Shown here in pieces: positions 5,941 through 53,319 of a stretch of 64,000 nucleotides of DNA. Each line of letters starts with the position of its first letter. The first letter of the stretch is position 1. Source of the DNA: Opitutaceae bacterium EW11 (GTDB lineage: Bacteria; Verrucomicrobiota; Verrucomicrobiia; Opitutales; Opitutaceae); assembly GCA_003054665.1 (NCBI GenBank), contig QAYY01000002.1, positions 186,001 to 250,000 of the forward strand, read 5' to 3'. The notes under the pieces were generated by a model, which was not told where the DNA came from, did not search any database, and saw only the letters and a program-made list of their open reading frames with translations. A program made the position numbers and the translations under genes.

Positions 5941-6310
5941 ACGAGTAGGGGAGGATTGGAGACACGAAGAGTGACGGGGCAGGGGAAGCCGGCGGGGGAT
6001 CGCCCAAAGAGGACGATGAATACTCGCTACCCAAGCTCCGTGACGCAGCAACGTGCGCGGGCCGCGTGGTGTATTCGAGAAATATGACAGGCAAAGGATC
6101 TCCATTCTGCAACTCGGAATTCTCAACGGCACTACGTACCTAAAACAGGGTGAGAATTCACTTTCCCTAGGTAAACGAGCGGCCGAGCGTGCTCCGCGCC
6201 GAGAAAAATCTCCTTCCCAACGAAGGACAAAGACGTTTATTTACCGCTAAATTCCTTTCGCGCTGCTATCAGTGCGAGGGGAACCTAGCCCCGTTCAGCT
6301 ACCCTTAACT
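5941..6310. promoter_or_regulatory. divergent intergenic region between serine hydrolase and TonB receptor
   Basis: 370 bp without a convincing gene. It is visibly richer in A and T than the flanking genes, especially from about 6110 to 6260, as expected for a promoter region serving the receptor and perhaps the hydrolase. I see no strong paired -35/-10 hexamers and no riboswitch or operator motif that I can name. The short frames that cross it are low-complexity and were not accepted. Confidence 0.4.
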
Positions 6311-9300
6311 ATGAACCGTAAAGAAACCTCGGCGAGGTATGCCCTCGCACTTCTGTTGCTTGCGGCTGCGCCTTCACTACGGGCGCAAACAGCGGCAACA
6401 CCCTCCAGCACCGCACCGGCTGCTGACGATGAAACGATCGAGTTGTCTCCGTTCACGGTGACGGCCACGGAGGATAAAGGCAGTTACCAAGCGACTGCCA
6501 CCCTCGCAGGCTCCCGTATCCGTACGGAACTACGCGACGTCGGATCCGCAGTGTCCGTTGTGACGGGCCAGTTCCTCAAGGACACTGGCGCGACCAACAA
6601 CGCGACGTTGCTTCAGTATACTGTGAGCACGGAAGTCGGCGGCGCCCAAGGCAACTTCGCGGGCCTCGGCGACACGGCGACGCTCGACGAAACCAGCAAG
6701 TTGATGAACCCGCAGTCGAACACGCGCGTTCGTGGACTGAGCCAGGCGGACAATACCCGTGACTTTTTCCTCACGGATATCCCCTGGGACTCGTTCAACG
6801 TAGGCCGCGTCGACCTGCAGCGTGGTCCCAATGCCATCCTCTTCGGCATGGGCGCGCCCGCTGGTATCATCAACGCCTCTGTCAACGGTGCGGCCTTCCG
6901 CACCAGCGGCACCGCTGAAGTTCGCGTCGACAACTACGGCACGATTCGCGGCTCGGTGGACTACAATCACGTCCTCCTTCCCGACGAGTTGGCACTGCGC
7001 ATTTCGGGCTTGGACGACAACACCAAGTACCGCCAGAACCCGGCCTATCAGCACGACCAGCGTCTCTATGTCGCGGGCCGTTGGGATCCGAAGTTCTTCC
7101 GCACCGAGAGCGCTCGCACGAGCTTCGAGGTGAAATTCGAGAAGGGTCGTATCCGCGCGAACCGTCCTCGCACCCTCCCGCCCGGTGACTTGATCACCGC
7201 GTGGTGGCGTGTTCCGAGCCTCTCCGCCATCCGTCAGGCTGGTGGCATGAGCCTGCAGACGCTCGCCGCCGGCGACACGGCTTTGATCGAAGCGGCGCGC
7301 GCCAAGGGCGATCTCGGCGCCGGCGTTCGTGGCTCCAACTCCGCCTACGTCAACAAGGCAATCGGCTCCTTCGGCCGCAACTACGGCGGCATCGTCGCTG
7401 TGTTTGATGATCCGAACTCGAGCAACGGCCACCTGATGACCACCGACATTTCGAAAACGGTGACCTCAGTTGTGACCGGGTTCCCCTGGACGATCATGTC
7501 GGGTGTCATGACCCGCTCGCAGATCGAGGGCGCTCTCAAGACCCTTCCGAACTACGACTTCTACCGCGACGAGACGTTGAAGGATAGTTCGATCTTCGAC
7601 TTCTACAACAAGCTGCTCGACGGTCCGAACAAACACGAATGGTCGAATCACGAGGCGTTCAACGCCCGTGCGTCCCAGACGTTCTTCAACAACCGCTTTG
7701 GTATTGAAGCGGTCGTCGACCAGCAGCACGTCGATCGTGGTCAGACCAACCTGATGTCGAATTTCGGCCAGGCCATCACGCTCGACATGAACAACACGTT
7801 GATCGATGGCTCGAAGAATCCGAACTACGGCAAGGCGGCCATCATCTCCGATCAGTTCGCGAACAACAGCTTCAAGTCGAAGCGCGAGTCCTGGCGTCTG
7901 ACGAGCTTTGCCGAGCTTCGGGGTGACGACATCACGAAGAACGACACGGTGGCCAAGATCATCGGCAAACACGTGATCACCGGCTTGTGGAGTTCGGAAG
8001 ACTATCACACCGAGACGCGTGGCTGGTTGAAGGCCGCTGCCGACGGCAGTTGGGGCGTGTACATCAACGACCCGATGCTCTCGAGCCGTTCGGTCAACAC
8101 GCTGAACTACCTCACGACCTCGAGCATTGCTGGGCTCTCGTCCCTCTCGGGCGCGAACATCGGCAACCTGCGCGCGGTGCAGAACCCGAGTGCGGGCTCG
8201 TTGACCGTGTTCGACATGACCTGGAAAGACTCGAGCGTCGACCCGAAGGCTTCGTGGGTTAACCCGCAGAATCCGAGCGACACGAAAGCGACCCAGGCTC
8301 AGAATCCGGCCAACTACAAGGGCTGGACCACGCGTGGCATCGGCCTTCTCAGCGACAGTGCGGGTGACCGCAATGCGCTCACGACCAACGCCCAGCTGAC
8401 GCGCACGATCACCGACTCCTATGCCGGTAACTGGCAGGCCTACTTCTTCGACGGCGTGCTGGTTCCCAGCGCGGGTATCCGCGTCGACAAGCAGAAGTCC
8501 TATGCTCTGAACCAGGGACAGATGCCGATGATGCCGGACGGCTCTCGTGTCATCGACTTCACCTCGTCGAAATACAAGCTGCCGGATGAGCCGGACAACA
8601 TCGTCACGGGCCGCACGAAGACCTACAGTGTCGTGCTCCACACCCCGAAGCGCATCCGCGAGAAGATCTGGGGCAACACGGGAATCTCGCTCTTCTTCAA
8701 TAAGTCCGAGAACTTCCAGCCCGCCGCCGGTCGTATCGACATCGTCGGTGACTCCCTCCCCTCGCCGCAAGGCAAGACGAAGGACTACGGCATCATGATC
8801 GAGACTCTGGACGATCGTCTGAGCCTCCGTATCAACCACTACAAGACCACCGTCACGAACGCCCAGCTGGCGGACTTCGGCGGTTCTTACATGACGTGGG
8901 GTGCTGAGGCCTGGGCCTACAACTTCGGCAAGGCCAATCAGCTCCGCATCGCCGCAGGTGGTTGGGCCGACTTCACCAAGGGCTATGATCCGCTGGGTAT
9001 CGTTGCCCAGGATACGCCTGCTGGTGGATGGACTGCCGATCAGGTCTCCCAGGCGCAGGCCGCGGGTGACGCGATCGTGGCCGCCTATATGGCCCACGCT
9101 CCGTCTGCCCAGTGGTTCAAGCTCTGGGGCATCAACACCGCCGAGGCCGACAAGGGCGCCTTCATCGCCGGAAATGCCCCCGCGGGTTTCACGATCACGG
9201 GCGACACCGAGTCCAAGGGCTGGGAATATGAGCTGAACGCTCAGCCGACGAAGAACTGGAACATCGCCATCAACGCTGCCAAGACGGATGCCCAACGCAC

Positions 9301-9940
9301 CAACATGGCCGGCTCGATGGTCAGTTGGGTCGAGGCTCGCTGGAAGGTGTACAACACCCCGGTGACGATGAACGGCCAGCCGCTCATGCTCCAGATCCCG
9401 GATCGCGATGGCGGACCGCGTCAGGCCATCATCGGCGACCTGCGTTTCTGGAACGGTGGCTACGGCGCGGGCGAAACGCTCCACGACAAGTACCTGCGTG
9501 AGTTCATGTCGGGCTACTGGCTGTACCGCATCCAGGAAGGTTCGAACGTTCCTGAGCTCCGTCCGTGGCGCTTCAACCTGATCACGAACTACAACTTCGA
9601 CCACGGCTTCCTCAAGGGGGTCAACGTCGGTGGTGGTTATCGTTGGGAAGATAAGCAGGTCGTTGGTTACCCGGTTCTCCCCGGTGCAACCCTGTCCGAT
9701 CCTCGCTCGTTCGATCTCGCGCATCCCTACAAGGCCAAGTCCCAGGACGCGATCGATCTGTGGGTCGGCTACAGCCGCAAGATTACCCGTAAGCTCGAGT
9801 GGCGTGTTCAGCTGAACGTCCGCAATATCTTCGGCAGCGATGACCTCATCCCGGTCACGGTTCAGCCGGATGGCAGCGTGGCTGTGGGACGCATCCCGGA
9901 GCCCACTGTCTGGACGCTCACCAATACGGTCTCGTTCTAA
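6311..9940 (+). CDS. TonB-dependent outer-membrane receptor (Opitutaceae type)
   Basis: 1209 residues. A signal peptide (MNRKETSARYALALLLLAAA..., cleaved near residue 25) is followed by a low-complexity Ala/Thr/Ser linker and ETIELSPFTVTAT (residues 41-53). This is the position of a TonB box and the motif typical of Opitutaceae receptors. The plug domain follows (SRIRTELRDVGSAVSVVTGQ, then DFFLTDIPWDSFNVGRVDLQ and RGPNAILFGMGAPAGIIN). The rest is the beta-barrel, with a C-terminal segment ending in aromatic Phe as outer-membrane proteins require. It imports a ligand across the outer membrane using TonB energy; the ligand is unknown, though saccharide-linked genes lie downstream. The ATG at 6311 was chosen because the signal peptide starts there; a start at 6272 is possible. 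No SusD gene is adjacent. Confidence 0.93.
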   Translation: MNRKETSARYALALLLLAAAPSLRAQTAATPSSTAPAADDETIELSPFTVTATEDKGSYQATATLAGSRIRTELRDVGSAVSVVTGQFLKDTGATNNATLLQYTVSTEVGGAQGNFAGLGDTATLDETSKLMNPQSNTRVRGLSQADNTRDFFLTDIPWDSFNVGRVDLQRGPNAILFGMGAPAGIINASVNGAAFRTSGTAEVRVDNYGTIRGSVDYNHVLLPDELALRISGLDDNTKYRQNPAYQHDQRLYVAGRWDPKFFRTESARTSFEVKFEKGRIRANRPRTLPPGDLITAWWRVPSLSAIRQAGGMSLQTLAAGDTALIEAARAKGDLGAGVRGSNSAYVNKAIGSFGRNYGGIVAVFDDPNSSNGHLMTTDISKTVTSVVTGFPWTIMSGVMTRSQIEGALKTLPNYDFYRDETLKDSSIFDFYNKLLDGPNKHEWSNHEAFNARASQTFFNNRFGIEAVVDQQHVDRGQTNLMSNFGQAITLDMNNTLIDGSKNPNYGKAAIISDQFANNSFKSKRESWRLTSFAELRGDDITKNDTVAKIIGKHVITGLWSSEDYHTETRGWLKAAADGSWGVYINDPMLSSRSVNTLNYLTTSSIAGLSSLSGANIGNLRAVQNPSAGSLTVFDMTWKDSSVDPKASWVNPQNPSDTKATQAQNPANYKGWTTRGIGLLSDSAGDRNALTTNAQLTRTITDSYAGNWQAYFFDGVLVPSAGIRVDKQKSYALNQGQMPMMPDGSRVIDFTSSKYKLPDEPDNIVTGRTKTYSVVLHTPKRIREKIWGNTGISLFFNKSENFQPAAGRIDIVGDSLPSPQGKTKDYGIMIETLDDRLSLRINHYKTTVTNAQLADFGGSYMTWGAEAWAYNFGKANQLRIAAGGWADFTKGYDPLGIVAQDTPAGGWTADQVSQAQAAGDAIVAAYMAHAPSAQWFKLWGINTAEADKGAFIAGNAPAGFTITGDTESKGWEYELNAQPTKNWNIAINAAKTDAQRTNMAGSMVSWVEARWKVYNTPVTMNGQPLMLQIPDRDGGPRQAIIGDLRFWNGGYGAGETLHDKYLREFMSGYWLYRIQEGSNVPELRPWRFNLITNYNFDHGFLKGVNVGGGYRWEDKQVVGYPVLPGATLSDPRSFDLAHPYKAKSQDAIDLWVGYSRKITRKLEWRVQLNVRNIFGSDDLIPVTVQPDGSVAVGRIPEPTVWTLTNTVSF

Positions 9941-44752: not shown

Positions 44753-45000
44753 GTGCTGCTAGGTCGTGCCTGCTCGCTCTTCGCGAACCCGTACCGGGCC
44801 CCGGTCGATCTCGGCCGAACGGCCGCCGCATTTTCTTCTGACGGGGGAGAGGAACCAAGCCGGCGTCGGCGGTCGGAGAGGTTGGCGATGCCGAACCTTG
44901 TAACCACGTCCGAACGAGTCGATTGTCGCGGACTGTTCCCGCCGTGACACACGACCCGCAGAGGGATGCGGAGGGTGCCTTCGGTTTTGTCCCCCACGTC

Positions 45001-48000
45001 ATGAACGCGCTTCTCGATTTCCGTCGGTCTCGTTGGGTTTGCCTGCTCGTCGCGTGCTTCTTCCCGATCGGCGCCTTTCTTTCCGGGTCGGAGCCGTCGG
45101 GCGGCGACTATCTGGCGCGTCTTGCCGCGGCGCGGCAGTTTGCCGCCGAGAAGTCCTGGTCGCTTGCGCGCGAGACCTACAAGCAGGCGCTCCCGCTGGC
45201 ACCGAGCGACGGCGAGCGGCGTTGGGTCGAGTTGTGGGAGGACGACGCGGCCTTGCGCGCGCTCGAGCCCGGGCGATGGGAAGAACGAGAGCCGGCTTGG
45301 AAGGAGCATCGCGCGCTTTTCGATAAGCTCCTGGCCCCGTATGCCCGCGAGCCGAAGAAAGACGCGTTCTGGTTCGCCGCGATGGAGAGCGAGGCGAACT
45401 GGACGGCGTATTCGAGGCACGGCGACGCCTGGGAGATTCGCAGGGAGGTGGCCGACGCGCTCGCGCTGCAGCCGCCGACGATCGAGAACGCCGACGCCTA
45501 TGTGGATTTTCTTCAGCGCAGCCTCTCGCGTTCCGCCGCGGAGCCGTGGGCCCAGATTCGCGACCAGGCGTTTTGGCGCGAGCATCTGGCCGCGGCTGCA
45601 CGAGCGACCAAGGATGGGACTCGGCGCGCCTGGTGCTTGTTGACGTTTGCGGAACTCACAATCGGGGACGATACGGTGGCGATTTCGGAGCGTCTCGCCG
45701 CGCTCGACGCAGCGATTTCCGCGGCGCATGGCACGGCGTGGGACGCGCTGGCGCGAACAACGGCCTTTGTCTGGAAGTCGCAACGCGGACTCGATGTCGA
45801 AGCCCCGCCGGGGAGTCGTCCGGATTTCCGTGAGCGTGTCCATATAGCCGACACTCTGCGGAACGATCTGGAGACGGCGCCGGACTCGCCGGGAAAGGAC
45901 CGGCTCCTGCGGGAGGTCACGCGCCTCCGCGACCATTGGCAGAAGCCGACGCTCAAAGTCCTCGCGCCTCAGCAGGCGTTTTCAGGAACCGTGTTTTCGT
46001 TCGGGGTGGGGGCGAGCGGAATCGGCCGGCTTCGAATGCAGCTTTTTCAGCTCTCGCCGCAGGAATTCGCCGCGAACGCACAACGACAGGATCGCCCGCG
46101 AACCAGGCCTCCGGGAAAACCGGTGTGGACTCTGGAAAAGCTCTTTCCGCATCCGGAGGACTTGAGCTGGCAATCGGACGTCGTCGGACCGCCTGACCGG
46201 TTGAAGTCCGGCCTCTACACCCTCGTCGTCGAGGCGATGGATCAGGACAAAGTGGCTCCGTTCATCTCCGACCTTGTTGTCTCCGATGTTCGTGTGACCT
46301 CTGTCGGCTCGCCCTCCGGACGTGCCACGCTCCTCTTCCAGACGGCGCGGGAATCGCGCCCTCTTGCGGGCGCTGACGTGAAGGCGGTGTTTTTTGGCGA
46401 CGAAGAATCGCGCGCGTTCGCCGGAAAGACCGACGCCGCCGGAACGGTTTCTCTCGAGTCCGCGCGACCGAAAGGCGGGGCGCTGCGGGTCGCCGGCGCT
46501 GTCGGCGATCAGTCGTTTTCCGCGCGCGTCGAGATGCCGCCGAAGGAACGCGACGAGTTCATGGTGGACCTGTTCCTCGATCGCGCTCTGTACCGGCCGG
46601 GTGAAACCGTTCATTGGAAAATGATCGTGCGTCAGCGGATCTCGGGGGCCCTGCGTGTTCCCGAACAGAAGGCGGGCTTTCGGTGGTCCCTGGAACTGGG
46701 CGACGAGACATTGAGCCCGGAGGCGGCCCTCGTCCTGAACGAATACGGGACGGCGCACGGCGAGGTGGTGATTCCGGCCACGGCCCGGCCCGGCGAAGCT
46801 GTGCTGCGACTTCGGCGCGACGCGGACGGCGAGGGGGAATGGAATCACCGGGAGGATGCCTTTCGCGTGGACAGTTTCCGGGCGCCGGCGATGCAGCTGT
46901 CGCTCGAACCTGCGAGCCCGCCGCAGTCGCTTCGGCCCGGACAGGAGGTCCGATTCCGCGCGCGACTCGGCTATTTTTCCGGAGGTCCCGCCGCCGGCGT
47001 GCCGATTCGGTGCGAGCTGCTAGCGACCGCCAATCACCTGCTCGCAAGCGCCGACGGGCAGCGGACGGATGAGAGTCTGAAAAGGCTGAAGAAGAACCTT
47101 GAAAGCGTGACAAACACTGCGGGCGTCGCCGAGTTCAGGGTCGCGCTTCCGCCGGATCTGCCCTCTCGTCTGACGCTCCTCGTATCCGCTACCGCGTTAC
47201 CGGATGGCGGAGAGCCCGTCCATGCGCTTCAGTCGATGACGATCACAGACTCCGGCTTGTTGGTGGATGCCGGCGACGAAACAACGAAAGCGCAGATTCG
47301 CGCTGCCGGGTCGGACGCGGTCTTTTCGGTGCGCATCGTCAACGGGATGATGGAACCGTCGCCGTTCCGGGGGCTGGTCGAACTGGTGGAGGAGCGTTGG
47401 GTGGGACTCTGGCTCGATGCGAACGGAACGATAGTGCCGAGCGAACCTCCGCTTGGGAGCGACGCGACGGCTCTCCACGAAGGCTGGGCCACGGTTCGCA
47501 TCGCGTGTCAGGAGGCGCAAGCCGGTGCCGATGGCTTGCTCAACACCGCATTTCGACTCCCTCACGCCGGCATCTTCCGGCTGAGAGTGCTGGGCCCGGA
47601 TGGCGAGACACCGCTGGAGCTGACGACGTCTGCGTTTGTCTGGCGGTACAACTTCGACGGGCGGCTGGCGGTCGTCGCGGTCGGCGAGCGAGATGCCAGG
47701 CTGTCGTTCCCACCCCAGGCGGCGTATCTATTCGGGCCGGAGCGGGAGAATGGCGACAAACCGCGGCGGCTGCTCTGCGTTCTCCCCGAGAAGGCGCCAT
47801 TCGGTGTCGTGACACTCTGGAACGGCGATGAGGAGAGTATTCAGTGGGTGGATGCCCGAGGGTCGCGCATCTGCTGGCTCACGCTGCCGAAAGGCATCTC
47901 GGGAGGTTCATGGCGGGCCGACCTTTCCATTCCGGGCAGCTCTTTCGGATCGTTGCGCACGGCGTTTTGGTCGGAGCCCGAACCTTCCCGTGAGTTGAAA

Positions 48001-50679
48001 CTCCAGATCGATCCGGTGGAGCGGGAGTCGAAGCCGGGGGAAGCGGTCGACGTGAGATTGCAGCTGAGCGACGCCAAGGGCCGTCCACGGCCAGGAGAGA
48101 TCGCGGTCGCGGTCACGGATGAATCCGTGAATCGGCTCACGGACAGAACCGTCGATAAACCTCGGTTCACGGCGGAGACCGAGCCCAGCGGCCGACTTTG
48201 GGTGACGTTTCCACCCGTTCCGCAGCCGTTCGTGCCCGCGTCGCCGCCTGACCAGCGTCCAGGAGCGGTCATCAGAAGCGCGCGACCCGACGCTTTAGGG
48301 GGAGATCAAGTCGTTCTCTCGCCCTTTGAAATCAACAGTCCCGGCGTTTCGATGGGCTACGCGTCAGGAGCCGGAGGCCGGATGAAGGCGAAAGCCGCCG
48401 ACGCTGCGCTTGGTCAAGGCAATGGCCTCGGAAGCATCGTTACCGTGCGGCGCCATTTTTCCTCCACGGCTTTTTGGGCCCCGGACGTGGTGGCCGACCG
48501 CGAAGGAGCCGCTGTCGTGCATTTTACCTACCCGGACAACCTCACCGAATGGCGCGTCGAAGCGTATGCCGTCGGTGCGGACGGTTCCTCCTTCGGGCGC
48601 GACGCCGTGTTCACAAAGACGTCGCTGCCGTTCCAGGCGCGGCTTCAAACGCCTCGCTTTCTCGTCACGGGCGACCGCGCGGAGATTTCGGCGCTCGTGG
48701 TGAACCGGACCGATGACAAGCTCGTGGCCAAACTGGGAATGCGGACCTCCGGCCCCGTGTCGCCTTTGGCCGACACCCAATCCTCGGTCGATGTCCGACC
48801 GCAGGGCGAGGCGAGGCACGGCTGGAGTTTGCAGGCATCCGGATTGGGTGACGCCGAGTTCACGCTCGAGGGCCGCAGCCGAGCGGGAGACGACGGCATG
48901 CACGTCAGCATTCCCGTCGTCGAAGACGGCCTCGTGCAACACACGGCGTTTAGCGGCCGGCTTGGCCCGGGCGAAACGGAACGCGCTTTCGATCTCGCGC
49001 TTCCCGAGCCGATGGACCCGGGGCGCACGCAGGCCGTCGTGCAGCTCAGCTCAAGCCGGGCCGCAGTCGTCCTCGATGCACTGCCGTTCCTGATCGATTA
49101 TCCGTACGGCTGCGTCGAGCAGACGATGAGCCGTTTTTTCCCGGCGGTGGCGGTGCAGCAGGCGCTCCAGCGTTTTGGGATCTCGCCGAAGGACCTCGAC
49201 GAGCGCCTTCTTCGGGAAACGGAGGCTCGCGGCGACGGGCCGGTGCCGGCCTGGAAGAAACTGGATGATGTCGTGCAGTATGGGATACGGCGCCTCGTGC
49301 AGGCCCAGCGGGGTGACGGAGGATTCGGTTGGTGGCCGGACGCACCCGATCGCGATCTGTGGATGACGAGTTACGTTGCCTGGGGCCTGGAGGTGGCGAG
49401 CGACGGCGGCGCGAATCCGCCGGACGAACTGCTCGAATCGACGCGCCAAGCCGTCATCGACGCGTTGAAAGTGACGAAGATCGCACCCGACGAAGCCGCA
49501 TTCGCCCTCGCCGCGCTGGCTCGCGGGCACGTCTCGGTCGCCGAAGTCGACGCCGTCCGCCCGGTCTTTGAGTCCCTTTACCGCGATCGCGAAAAACTGG
49601 GCGCATCCGGCCGCGCCTGCCTCGCTCTGGCCTCGATCGTGTGGGGAACGACGGATCAGCGCCGTGTCTTGCGGGACAACCTCGAGAACGGAGCCGACCG
49701 GAAAAAATCCGACGATGCCGGCGACACGGTCCATTGGGGGGCGACGGAAGGGTATTGGCTGAGTCGGGACAACGCAGCCGAGTGCACGGCTTTGTCGCTG
49801 CTCGCGCTTCTGAAGCTCGACCCAAAGGATCCGCTGATTGAGCCCGCGGCCAACTGGCTCGTGCTCAACCGTCGAAGCTCACGTTGGAAGAGCACGCGCG
49901 ACACGGCGTTTGCCGTTCTGGCGCTCACCGAACTGATGGCTGCCCGTTCCGAGATCGACGCCGAGGCGGAGATCGACGTCGAACTGGACGGTTATTCCGT
50001 CGGCCGTGTGCGGCTCAACCGGGCGTCCCTGCTCCAAGGCGCGCAGCAGGTTTCGCTGCCGGGAACGCAGCTGAAACCGGGGACCGTGCGGATCAATTTG
50101 CGGCGCACGGGTGGAGACGCACCAGTATACGCCGTCGGTCTGTCTTCTGCCTGGGTGCAGGGCGACGCGGTGAAACCGGAGGGCCATCTGGTTTCGATCC
50201 ATCGATCCTTTGTCCGGCAGGCTCCGCAACCGACGCTCTCCGGTTCGGTTCTTGTTGCGCCGGTCGAGCTTTCGTCCGGCGGCGCCTGCAAGACCGGCGA
50301 GGAATTGGACGCAAGGGTGCATATCTCCGTCTCCAACGATCTCGAGTACGTGATGGTCGAAGTGCCGCGCCCGGCAGGATGCGAGCCGCTGAATCCCTTG
50401 AGCGGATGGGACGCACGACTGCTCCGCGATCAGGGGGACTCCCCGGCAGAGAGGATGGACGGGCGGGATGCGGGCACGGCCGTGTATCGGGAAGAGCACG
50501 ACACAAAGAGCGTCTTCTTCATCCGGTCGCTCCCTGCCGGAAAGTGGACGCTTCGCTTCGGCCTGCGGAGCGTCACACCCGGAGATTACCGCGCGTTGCC
50601 GGCCCAAGTGTCGGCCATGTACGTGCCCGAAGTAACCGCCAACAGCGATGCGCAGCGGGTGAAGCTCGAGGCCAAATAG
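45001..50679 (+). CDS. bacterial alpha-2-macroglobulin with thioester
   Basis: 1892 residues. An N-terminal export segment (about 14-30, VCLLVACFFPIGAFLSG) may be a signal peptide or, with LVAC, a lipobox. After an alpha-helical stretch come macroglobulin domains: VDLFLDRALYRPGETVHWKMIVRQ (MG2, about 520-545) and RPGQEVRFRARLGYFSGGPAAGVPI. The A2M domain begins near residue 1150 (FSSTAFWAPDVVADREGAAVV), and the thioester is GCVEQ with Cys1371 and Gln1374 in YPYGCVEQTMSRFFP. The thioester domain continues to about 1650. Such proteins trap invading proteases covalently in the periplasm. Just before the A2M domain lies VVLSPFEIN (1104-1112), a motif known from TonB receptors. The usual partner gene for PBP1c (pbpC) is not beside it. 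The ATG at 45001 suits the export segment. Confidence 0.9.
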   Translation: MNALLDFRRSRWVCLLVACFFPIGAFLSGSEPSGGDYLARLAAARQFAAEKSWSLARETYKQALPLAPSDGERRWVELWEDDAALRALEPGRWEEREPAWKEHRALFDKLLAPYAREPKKDAFWFAAMESEANWTAYSRHGDAWEIRREVADALALQPPTIENADAYVDFLQRSLSRSAAEPWAQIRDQAFWREHLAAAARATKDGTRRAWCLLTFAELTIGDDTVAISERLAALDAAISAAHGTAWDALARTTAFVWKSQRGLDVEAPPGSRPDFRERVHIADTLRNDLETAPDSPGKDRLLREVTRLRDHWQKPTLKVLAPQQAFSGTVFSFGVGASGIGRLRMQLFQLSPQEFAANAQRQDRPRTRPPGKPVWTLEKLFPHPEDLSWQSDVVGPPDRLKSGLYTLVVEAMDQDKVAPFISDLVVSDVRVTSVGSPSGRATLLFQTARESRPLAGADVKAVFFGDEESRAFAGKTDAAGTVSLESARPKGGALRVAGAVGDQSFSARVEMPPKERDEFMVDLFLDRALYRPGETVHWKMIVRQRISGALRVPEQKAGFRWSLELGDETLSPEAALVLNEYGTAHGEVVIPATARPGEAVLRLRRDADGEGEWNHREDAFRVDSFRAPAMQLSLEPASPPQSLRPGQEVRFRARLGYFSGGPAAGVPIRCELLATANHLLASADGQRTDESLKRLKKNLESVTNTAGVAEFRVALPPDLPSRLTLLVSATALPDGGEPVHALQSMTITDSGLLVDAGDETTKAQIRAAGSDAVFSVRIVNGMMEPSPFRGLVELVEERWVGLWLDANGTIVPSEPPLGSDATALHEGWATVRIACQEAQAGADGLLNTAFRLPHAGIFRLRVLGPDGETPLELTTSAFVWRYNFDGRLAVVAVGERDARLSFPPQAAYLFGPERENGDKPRRLLCVLPEKAPFGVVTLWNGDEESIQWVDARGSRICWLTLPKGISGGSWRADLSIPGSSFGSLRTAFWSEPEPSRELKLQIDPVERESKPGEAVDVRLQLSDAKGRPRPGEIAVAVTDESVNRLTDRTVDKPRFTAETEPSGRLWVTFPPVPQPFVPASPPDQRPGAVIRSARPDALGGDQVVLSPFEINSPGVSMGYASGAGGRMKAKAADAALGQGNGLGSIVTVRRHFSSTAFWAPDVVADREGAAVVHFTYPDNLTEWRVEAYAVGADGSSFGRDAVFTKTSLPFQARLQTPRFLVTGDRAEISALVVNRTDDKLVAKLGMRTSGPVSPLADTQSSVDVRPQGEARHGWSLQASGLGDAEFTLEGRSRAGDDGMHVSIPVVEDGLVQHTAFSGRLGPGETERAFDLALPEPMDPGRTQAVVQLSSSRAAVVLDALPFLIDYPYGCVEQTMSRFFPAVAVQQALQRFGISPKDLDERLLRETEARGDGPVPAWKKLDDVVQYGIRRLVQAQRGDGGFGWWPDAPDRDLWMTSYVAWGLEVASDGGANPPDELLESTRQAVIDALKVTKIAPDEAAFALAALARGHVSVAEVDAVRPVFESLYRDREKLGASGRACLALASIVWGTTDQRRVLRDNLENGADRKKSDDAGDTVHWGATEGYWLSRDNAAECTALSLLALLKLDPKDPLIEPAANWLVLNRRSSRWKSTRDTAFAVLALTELMAARSEIDAEAEIDVELDGYSVGRVRLNRASLLQGAQQVSLPGTQLKPGTVRINLRRTGGDAPVYAVGLSSAWVQGDAVKPEGHLVSIHRSFVRQAPQPTLSGSVLVAPVELSSGGACKTGEELDARVHISVSNDLEYVMVEVPRPAGCEPLNPLSGWDARLLRDQGDSPAERMDGRDAGTAVYREEHDTKSVFFIRSLPAGKWTLRFGLRSVTPGDYRALPAQVSAMYVPEVTANSDAQRVKLEAK

Positions 50680-51973: not shown

Positions 51974-53059
51974 TCAGTTCTTCAGAAACTCGTTCAGGGC
52001 AGCGCGGGTGATGCGCCAGGTCGAACCGATCTTTTTCCCCTTGAGCGATCCGTCATTGAGCGTCGCGATCACGTCGGCCTCGCTCACGCCCAGCGCCTGC
52101 GCGGCTTCGGCCGGGCTGAGCAACTCCGGAAGGCCGCTGGCTGCGGGAGCCGGATTGGCCACCTGTGCCGGAGCGCCGCCCGCGGGCGGGGTGCCTTGCG
52201 GGCTCAGAATGCCGCCGGGCTGATTCATCATTTGCTGCGCGAGGCCGAAGCCCATCGCGATCTCCGCCGCGGCTCCGCCCGGGCCGCCGCCGCCCTTGGC
52301 CATGCCCTCGGCCATCTGCATTTTGACGTAGTCGTTGAGGTTTCCGATCGCAGCCATGCTGGAGCGTTTGTCGATCGCCTGCTCGACCTCGGGAGGGACC
52401 GAGACGTTTTCCAGGATGAAGCTCGTCATCTGCAGACCGTAGCGGACCGTGATGATCGGGTTGATGATCGGCAGCAGGGCCTCGCCGAGCTCCCCGTAGC
52501 GCGCGGCGACGTCGAGAACCGGTACCTTGGCGGACGCGAGTGCGTCGGTGAACACGCTGACGATGCGGGAGCGCATCGTGTCGGCGAATTCATCGAGGCG
52601 GAAATGATTGTCGGTCCCGGCGACTTCCTTGAGGAACGTTTTCACGTCTACGATCTTGAAGTCGTAGGTGCCGAAGGCCCGGGCGCGGACGATCCCGAAG
52701 TCCGGGTCGCGGAGCATGACGGGATTCGACGTGCCCCACTTGTTGCCGGTGAAGAGGCGGGTGTTGACGAAATAGACGTCCGCCTTGAACGGGCTTTCCA
52801 GACCATACTTCCAGCCCTTCAGCGTGGAGAGGATCGGAATGTTGTCCGTGACGAGCGTGTGTTTGCCCGGGCCGAACGTGTCGCCGAACTGGCCCAAGTA
52901 GAGGAACTGGGCCACCTGGGACTCGCGTACGATCAGCTGAGCGCCGCGCTTGATTTCCTTGTCCTGATCCGGGAAGCGCCACGACAGCGTGTCGCGCGAG
53001 TCGTCCTCCCACTGGATGATTTCGAGAAACTGCGTCTTGAGGTAATCGAAGAGACCCAT
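51974..53059 (-). CDS. SPFH (YdjI-like) protein with C-terminal excisionase-type helix-turn-helix
   Basis: 361 residues from MGLFDYLKTQFLEIIQWEDD at 53059, the usual YdjI/virion-core-like start. The SPFH domain (about 25-235) includes ALIVRE-type sequence QLIVRESQVAQFLYLGQFGDTFGPGKHTL and ITVRYGLQMTSFILENVSVPPEVEQAID. A Gly/Ala/Met-rich linker (KGGGGPGGAAAEIAMGFGLAQQMM) follows. The last 50 residues (LLSPAEAAQALGVSEADVIATLNDGSLKGKKIGSTWRITRAALNEFL) read as a MerR/excisionase-type DNA-binding domain. In B. subtilis YdjI recruits PspA to the membrane. The DNA-binding-like tail is unusual beside an SPFH domain. Confidence 0.85.
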   Translation of the reverse strand: MGLFDYLKTQFLEIIQWEDDSRDTLSWRFPDQDKEIKRGAQLIVRESQVAQFLYLGQFGDTFGPGKHTLVTDNIPILSTLKGWKYGLESPFKADVYFVNTRLFTGNKWGTSNPVMLRDPDFGIVRARAFGTYDFKIVDVKTFLKEVAGTDNHFRLDEFADTMRSRIVSVFTDALASAKVPVLDVAARYGELGEALLPIINPIITVRYGLQMTSFILENVSVPPEVEQAIDKRSSMAAIGNLNDYVKMQMAEGMAKGGGGPGGAAAEIAMGFGLAQQMMNQPGGILSPQGTPPAGGAPAQVANPAPAASGLPELLSPAEAAQALGVSEADVIATLNDGSLKGKKIGSTWRITRAALNEFLKN

Positions 53060-53319
53060 GGCCGTGATGATTGAGGTTATTGCGCCGTGGCGCATTGGCC
53101 GCGCCACTACAGAACCGGCACACTAGCGTCCCGCCGCGGTTTGTGGAGAAGGATTTGGCGCGATGGAAAGATCGTTTGGCACTGTAAACTGGGCAGCGCG
53201 GCGCAGGTGATGCCCGTTGACCTGGACCGCGGGTATCTCGAGGTCCGAGACGGTCCGGCATCGGCGTCGTTTTCTCGCCCTTGTTGACGCCGGACGGCTC
53301 GCAGGTTGCTTTCTGCGCC

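What the first reader, a model, noticed from the sequence alone, without database searches (positions are those of the whole stretch)
48301..48420. TonB-receptor-type LSPFEI motif inside the alpha-2-macroglobulin, before the A2M domain
Residues 1101-1112 read GDQVVLSPFEIN. The TonB receptor in this window has ETIELSPFTV at its N-terminus, and I recall this LSPF pattern as the standard TonB-box region of Opitutaceae receptors. In the macroglobulin it sits in a low-complexity Gly/Ala-rich stretch just before the A2M domain, where the protease-sensitive bait region is expected. Two ideas follow: the bait mimics the exposed N-terminus of receptors that proteases or phages would attack, or the region can bind TonB. 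Either would be a new link between the two systems. Chance resemblance of a six-residue motif is also possible.
Basis: partly seen in the sequence, partly recalled or inferred. Interest (0 to 1): 0.6.

Follow-up and report, generated by a model that had tools for sequence, protein, structure and literature searches.

The report
Receptor TonB-box segment in macroglobulin bait
A bacterial protease trap carries, in the flexible loop that proteases cut, a worn copy of the start of the cell's own nutrient receptors, and relatives in two phyla carry clearer copies, which hints at an unreported link between protease defence and the TonB energy system.

Summary
The motif is real and is not chance. The window's alpha-2-macroglobulin (A2M) has, just before its A2M domain, a divergent copy of the N-terminus of TonB-dependent receptors: about 34 residues (QVVLSPFEINSPGVSMGYASGAGGRMKAKAADAA), not six. 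A profile built only from 30 receptors of the same genome (Pfam Plug in 30 of 30) scores it above all 500 shuffles of the bait. The same test finds the segment in 27 of 47 Opitutaceae baits, 1 of 5 elsewhere in the order and 0 of 39 elsewhere in the phylum. Some relatives carry it nearly whole (up to 96 bits). Ereboglobus-type baits hold pieces of another plug class; an Aureibacter (Bacteroidota) bait holds a plug domain that Pfam recognises at 45.5 bits. The segment also sits in linkers of some VIT/DUF2135 and YfbK-type proteins. In one genus the A2M box resembles the genus-specific receptor box and is the best conserved part of the bait. The motif is predicted disordered, as a bait should be. 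Function is inferred: TonB docking on the bait is my first choice; neutral accretion and receptor mimicry are the main rivals. Six of 13 window-type baits lack a detectable segment, and the window's copy is eroded.

The parts
44923..50679 (+). alpha-2-macroglobulin gene (alternative ATG start at 45001)
   Evidence: Pfam MG2, A2M, TED_complement, bMG10 above cut-off
48169..48465 (+). bait region, predicted disordered (protein residues 1083-1181)
   Evidence: AlphaFold2 model residues 168-266 have pLDDT under 50 and no secondary structure
48307..48408 (+). segment homologous to the N-terminus of TonB-dependent receptors, divergent copy
   Evidence: receptor-only profile, 0 of 1000 and 0 of 500 shuffles reach the score
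48301..48336 (+). GDQVVLSPFEIN, TonB-box-like motif
48448..48459 (+). RRHF, comparable with the R..F that follows the bait in human A2M (R732, F735)
   Evidence: PMC9352918 passages; compared by eye
48466..48732 (+). A2M domain
   Evidence: PF00207, residues 1182-1270, 55 bits
49108..49122 (+). GCVEQ thioester motif (CXEQ)
   Evidence: CXEQ as given in PMC4498604
6272..9940 (+). TonB-dependent receptor used for comparison
   Evidence: Pfam Plug 36.5 bits
6431..6637 (+). receptor box and plug start, the donor-type sequence
   Evidence: C21:192431-192637

Best explanation
SHOWN: the bait of this thioester-containing macroglobulin contains a worn copy of the TonB-box and plug-start segment of the cell's TonB-dependent receptors. 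INFERRED: the segment was taken from a receptor gene and kept because TonB can dock on its box. TonB reaches across the periplasm and grips receptor boxes (established knowledge, recalled). A box in the exposed bait would bring the trap to energised TonB-ExbB-ExbD complexes near receptors, or let TonB act on the bait, whose release after cleavage fires the trap. Cleavage would also part the box from the trap. The same segment in linkers of VIT/DUF2135 and YfbK-type proteins would give them the same docking site. In the window protein only the box and traces of the plug start remain.
For: Homology: (27 of 47 Opitutaceae baits above all 500 shuffles; 1 of 5 elsewhere in the order; 0 of 39 elsewhere in the phylum). 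The profile comes from 30 own-genome proteins that all have Pfam Plug. Nearly whole pieces: L009 96 bits, L016 83, L021 72, L026 69. Pfam Plug in the Ereboglobus bait L205 at 27.2 bits, cut-off 23.9, and in the Aureibacter bait L332 at 45.5 bits. Box kept at the start: in 27 of 27 passing family baits the match begins at model position 1-4, while the end varies from 14 to 67. One genus, g41: 5 of 5 A2M boxes have F or Y at position 3, as do 29 of 29 receptor-type boxes parsed from 30 loci (of 82 matches in three of the five genomes); own-genome receptor rows have I, V or L in 30 of 30. In an alignment of those five baits the best conserved ten-column windows are the box (73%) and GYxAxxTLAGSR (70%), median window 29%. 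Other carriers: VIT/DUF2135 7 of 12 at 22 bits or more (no shuffles run), YfbK-type 8 of 27 above all shuffles. The genome has 33 TonB_C matches.
Against: No binding was tested, and that LSPFxV is the TonB box is inferred from position and pattern. Six of 13 window-type baits are not above shuffles, and over those 13 the segment is not among the best conserved windows. The segment is gained and lost within a genus (g10: L018 and L020 have it, L022 lacks it). One YfbK-type linker (L324) matches only past the box, at model positions 19-58, above its shuffles, and L305 and L310 look like plug-only remnants by eye but are not above shuffles. Ereboglobus-type baits keep plug peptides that TonB is not known to bind, in L262 in changed order. 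The genus match is one evolutionary event and could reflect acquisition from the genus's own receptors. In g41 the best ungapped ten residues after TLAGSR also average 71% identity (before the box 50%).
Confidence: 0.42

Rival explanations
1. Neutral accretion. Disordered linkers and baits tolerate any sequence. Receptor genes are numerous in these genomes, so stray pieces of receptor N-termini land in linkers, stay in frame and decay.
For: Human A2M works with its whole bait replaced by GGS triplets (PMC9352918 passages), so the site is permissive. Lengths vary widely and there is gain and loss within a genus. A match without the box in the YfbK-type L324 and a changed order in L262. 41 profile matches in the own genome. 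Segment not well conserved over the 13 window-type baits.
Against: In 27 of 27 passing family baits the match starts at the box. Within one genus the box and GYxAxxTLAGSR are the best conserved parts of the bait. The L009 segment is 76% identical in protein to a receptor-type sequence of its genome while only 17 of 52 shared residues use the same codon, which suggests an old copy whose protein sequence was kept. Recurrence in two A2M types, two phyla and the same few protein families. A background rate in other disordered exported proteins was not measured.
Confidence: 0.3
2. Receptor-mimic bait. The bait copies exposed receptor sequence so that proteases able to cut receptors in the periplasm are trapped by the macroglobulin.
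For: The segment is in the bait and predicted disordered in the window model, low confidence in the L141 model too. Ereboglobus-type baits string together conserved plug peptides, in L262 in changed order, as if the peptides themselves mattered.
Against: The same segment sits in VIT/DUF2135 and YfbK-type linkers, which are not known protease baits. Bacterial A2Ms are described as broad-spectrum inhibitors (abstract of PMC4498604 in the listing), for which a receptor copy is not needed.
Confidence: 0.2
3. Chance resemblance of a short motif.
For: The window copy alone reaches only E 0.31 in its own genome, and LSPF occurs in other reading frames of the window.
Against: Same place in relatives with up to 96 bits; shuffles and baits from elsewhere in the phylum negative.
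Confidence: 0.02

Closest known systems
Bacterial alpha-2-macroglobulin (ECAM/YfhM type, Pfam PF00207, PF17973)
   Same: MG2, A2M, TED and bMG10 domains, CXEQ thioester motif, disordered bait before the A2M domain
   Different: bait contains receptor-derived sequence; 0 of 39 baits elsewhere in the phylum do, many of them Met/Ala/Gly-rich by eye
TonB-dependent receptor N-terminus (TonB box and Pfam Plug PF07715)
   Same: box and plug-start sequence, clear in relatives; the window receptor aligns over this stretch with the enantio-pyochelin receptor 3qlb
   Different: no barrel and, in the window A2M, no recognisable plug domain; it is a segment inside another protein
SusC-type receptor N-terminus in Bacteroidota A2M and YfbK-type proteins
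   Same: in the A2M bait and ahead of vWF_A, from that phylum's own receptor class
   Different: different receptor class, so probably an independent acquisition; the Aureibacter protein L332 keeps most of a plug; 2 of 6 baits read (L327, L328) show nothing convincing
YfbK-type vWF_A proteins and VIT/DUF2135 proteins
   Same: carry the same segment in a linker in part of the Opitutaceae
   Different: not protease traps as far as known

Membership tests
bacterial alpha-2-macroglobulin | MG2, A2M, TED and bMG10 domains | tested here: met
   all above curated cut-off; bMG5 and A2M_BRD matched below it
bacterial alpha-2-macroglobulin | CXEQ thioester motif | tested here: met
   GCVEQ at 49108-49122
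bacterial alpha-2-macroglobulin | disordered bait just before the A2M domain | tested here: met
   pLDDT under 50 and no secondary structure over model residues 168-266; the alignment was distant (18-22% identity)
bacterial alpha-2-macroglobulin | periplasmic, anchored to the inner membrane | tested here: inconclusive
   N-terminal hydrophobic stretch seen by eye in the translation; no signal predictor was available
bacterial alpha-2-macroglobulin | traps proteases after bait cleavage | not testable with these tools
   needs an assay
TonB-dependent receptor | TonB box | tested here: inconclusive
   profile match at the receptor box position; binding not tested
TonB-dependent receptor | plug domain | tested here: not met
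   no Plug hit in the window A2M up to E 1; relatives L205 and L332 do have one
TonB-dependent receptor | outer-membrane beta-barrel | tested here: not met
   the Pfam matches of the window A2M are macroglobulin domains only

The most novel reading that the evidence does not exclude
TonB is not only a transporter motor. In Opitutales and Bacteroidota it also docks on, and may pull, a set of non-transport periplasmic proteins (macroglobulin traps, VIT/DUF2135 and YfbK-type proteins) through receptor boxes that these proteins took from the cell's own receptors and that follow changes in the receptor box, so that the arming or placing of the trap is tied to the proton-motive force.
Probability: 0.22. 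Interest if true: 0.92.

Novelty: new variant of a known kind. Interest (0 to 1): 0.72.

Why it matters
If TonB docks on macroglobulin baits, a motor known for nutrient import would also serve periplasmic defence, and the role of TonB-type boxes in non-transport proteins could be tested with a peptide pull-down. Even if the segments prove neutral, receptor N-termini recurring in the baits and linkers of the same few envelope protein families in two phyla is a pattern that needs explaining, and it gives a natural series of bait sequences from a plug domain to a bare box.

Tried and rejected
Chance was rejected by shuffles and out-group baits. Recent gene conversion was rejected for L009: 64% DNA identity and 17 of 52 shared residues with the same codon against its nearest receptor-type sequence. 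A search for one nearest donor was weak because the segments are short; L225, listed among receptors, lies in a YfbK-type open frame (note), and four fetched rows did not fit and were dropped. My regex anchors failed or misplaced some loci (L005, L012, L015, L025 misanchored; L001 spurious) and were redone. Dropped there: L002 and L004 (same genes as L003 and L001), L017 (bait off the contig), L116 (same gene as L023), L267, L277, L118, L128 (no anchor) and L216 (no bait in the locus); 3 of 30 loci without an anchor. One search misplaced one box (L030), corrected; there the TLAGSR identity of 93% is set by my search pattern and is not used as evidence, the unselected windows replace it. Fold search was not used; promoters, RNA families and phage records were not searched.

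Papers: searches (macroglobulin with TonB terms, TonB box with Opitut, TonB box with macroglobulin) found none. Searches listed papers; I saw titles and abstract starts of those listed (15 of 772, 12 of 4,485), none on the combination. I read passages of PMC9352918 and PMC4498604, not the whole texts. The library lacks most subscription journals and preprints.

Full report
What was checked. The motif GDQVVLSPFEIN lies at window 48301-48336 in the macroglobulin ORF 44923-50679. Pfam finds MG2, A2M, TED_complement and bMG10 above their cut-offs, and the thioester motif is GCVEQ. The A2M domain begins at residue 1182, shortly after RRHF (1176-1179), which I compare by eye with the R732 and F735 that follow the bait in human A2M (PMC9352918 passages). 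The motif therefore sits in the bait.

The receptor side. The window's receptor (6272-9940, Pfam Plug 36.5 bits) carries ETIELSPFTVTATEDKGSYQATATLAGSRIRTELRDVGS. A search of the genome with 80 residues from its box onward gave 38 matches. The 30 loci returned were aligned into a profile of 67 positions. All 30 open frames have Pfam Plug; two also match the barrel model in the part held. The window receptor aligns with the enantio-pyochelin receptor 3qlb over this stretch. That the ExVxLSPFxV part is the TonB box is my inference from position and pattern.

Is it more than chance? Scored with the receptor-only profile, the 130 residues before the window's A2M domain give 10.9 bits; none of 1000 shuffles reaches that and the best has 6.3. 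The longer cut gives 10.5 against a best of 6.0 in 500. In a profile search of the whole genome the place has only E 0.31, so on its own it is weak; the second A2M of the same genome has E 4.9e-9.

Relatives. One search found matches in 37 of 252 genomes of the family. I examined 47 baits of the family (rows dropped are told under Tried and rejected); 27 of 47 score above all 500 of their own shuffles. Some passes are narrow (L262 4.5 against 4.4), and some bare boxes fall just short (L019, L029, L115, L263, L276 with 1 of 500). Of the 13 baits of the window's own A2M type (L001, L005-L016), 7 pass: L001, L005, L006, L009, L013, L014, L016. The best of the family are nearly whole: L009 96 bits, L016 83, L021 72, L026 69. 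Elsewhere in the order 1 of 5 passes (L121, at model positions 21-35; its box is readable by eye). Elsewhere in the phylum 0 of 39 pass. In a scan of named genomes 5 of 79 pass (L141, L142, L143, L204, L219). A2Ms from Planctomycetes, Akkermansia and Kiritimatiellae in that scan do not pass.

Different receptor class, same place. Ereboglobus-type baits (L263 and L264 from G084, L262 and L265 from G083, same genus; read; Ereboglobus belongs to Opitutaceae) have a box followed by peptides of another plug class. Pfam Plug finds one at 27.2 bits, cut-off 23.9 (L205, the same gene as L264). The receptor of that class reads GEFMKYMPGV and then VRVGGLDPKYAGFSMDG; in L262 the two come in the reverse order. 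In Bacteroidota, six A2M baits were read (L325-L328, L331, L332). A profile of 12 SusC-type N-termini (7 of them annotated as TonB-dependent receptor, 5 without annotation) scores L325 13.3, L326 9.1 and L331 14.2 bits with 0 of 1000 shuffles; L332 5.9 with 3 of 1000; L328 0.5 with 16 of 1000; L327 nothing. Of 79 control baits 44 gave a score, the best 0.7. Pfam finds a plug in L332 (45.5 bits, profile 20-107 of 107) and a CarbopepD_reg_2 domain in L331 (58.8 bits), both ahead of the A2M domain.

Other proteins. Of 12 VIT/DUF2135 loci, 7 carry the segment at 22 bits or more, in a mid-protein linker; the own genome's L084 does not (no shuffles were run there). In G144 this gene lies on the same contig as the A2M, with a 296-residue ORF between that has the box alone. 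Of 27 YfbK-type linkers, 8 are above all shuffles (the 30 best loci were given, 3 had no anchor). Two Bacteroidota YfbK-type proteins have a CarbopepD_reg domain and a SusC-type box (29.6 and 7.5 bits, 0 of 1000 shuffles each). In the own genome the only non-receptor carriers that I recognised among 41 matches are the two A2Ms; 30 of the others were checked with Pfam.

Is it selected? In genus g41 five A2M baits were aligned. The best conserved ten-column windows are the box (73%) and GYxAxxTLAGSR (70%), against a median of 29%; the next is a structured stretch, SLDQYxxHxW, at 66%. By parts, the box averages 68%, the 40 residues before 26%, the middle 34% and the rest after 30%; but the best ungapped ten residues after average 71% and before 50%. 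All five boxes have F or Y at position 3. So do 29 of 29 receptor-type boxes that I could parse from 30 loci, which are the best of 82 matches in three of those five genomes. In the own genome 30 of 30 receptor rows have I, V or L there. Four of the five A2Ms have S at position 9, which none of those 29 receptors has, so they probably inherited one copy rather than each copying anew. L009 is 76% identical in protein to a receptor-type sequence of its genome while only 17 of 52 shared residues use the same codon, which suggests an old copy whose protein sequence was kept. Against selection: over the 13 window-type baits the best conserved windows lie in a structured strand and not in the segment; there is gain and loss within genus g10; one YfbK-type linker matches without the box; and the genus match is a single event.

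Structure. In the AlphaFold2 model of window residues 916-1435 (mean pLDDT 61.7; alignment rows at 18-22% identity) model residues 168-266 have pLDDT under 50 and no secondary structure; LSPF begins at 217. In the model of L141 residues 112-248 have pLDDT under 50, with a low-confidence helix at 211-234. The motif is thus not in a confidently folded strand.

How it may work. Human A2M needs no particular bait sequence, and its trap is proposed to fire when the cut bait retracts from a channel (PMC9352918 passages). [quoted passage not shown] TonB works in the same space (recalled). A box in the bait could place the trap at TonB. The presence of the segment in linkers that are not known baits favours docking over mimicry; the permissive nature of such linkers keeps neutral accretion close behind. 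I put docking at 0.42, accretion at 0.3, mimicry at 0.2.

Known or new. The domains are known; I found no paper on the combination in the searches named under Tried and rejected, in a library that lacks most subscription journals. I rate it a new variant of a known kind.

Noticed in passing
L064:1665-4847 and L064:5001-5888 (G144): A VIT/DUF2135 gene with the receptor segment in a linker, and a 296-residue ORF with a TonB-box-like motif and no Pfam match, lie upstream of the A2M on the same contig.
   Followed up: partly
L085:118-1449 (G143): A VWA protein next to the VIT/DUF2135 gene ends in a box-like sequence, LSPFEVLSQQAEDKGYKFNKK.
   Followed up: no
L064 around 8470 (G144): The A2M there is read as two open frames in the same phase parted by a stop codon; several other A2Ms of the family show open frames of about 1155-1277 residues. 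Split genes, decay, contig ends or assembly error was not decided.
   Followed up: no
L285, L293, L294 (G084, G083): Open frames of more than 3000 residues in Ereboglobus-type genomes contain a receptor plug signature, preceded by what looks by eye like a carboxypeptidase-regulatory stretch; what they are was not worked out.
   Followed up: no
own genome: 33 TonB_C matches, including single open frames with several copies (for example C4:267180-268418).
   Followed up: no
window 51974-53107, - strand: A Band 7 (SPFH) domain protein with a C-terminal helix-turn-helix match lies near the A2M.
   Followed up: no
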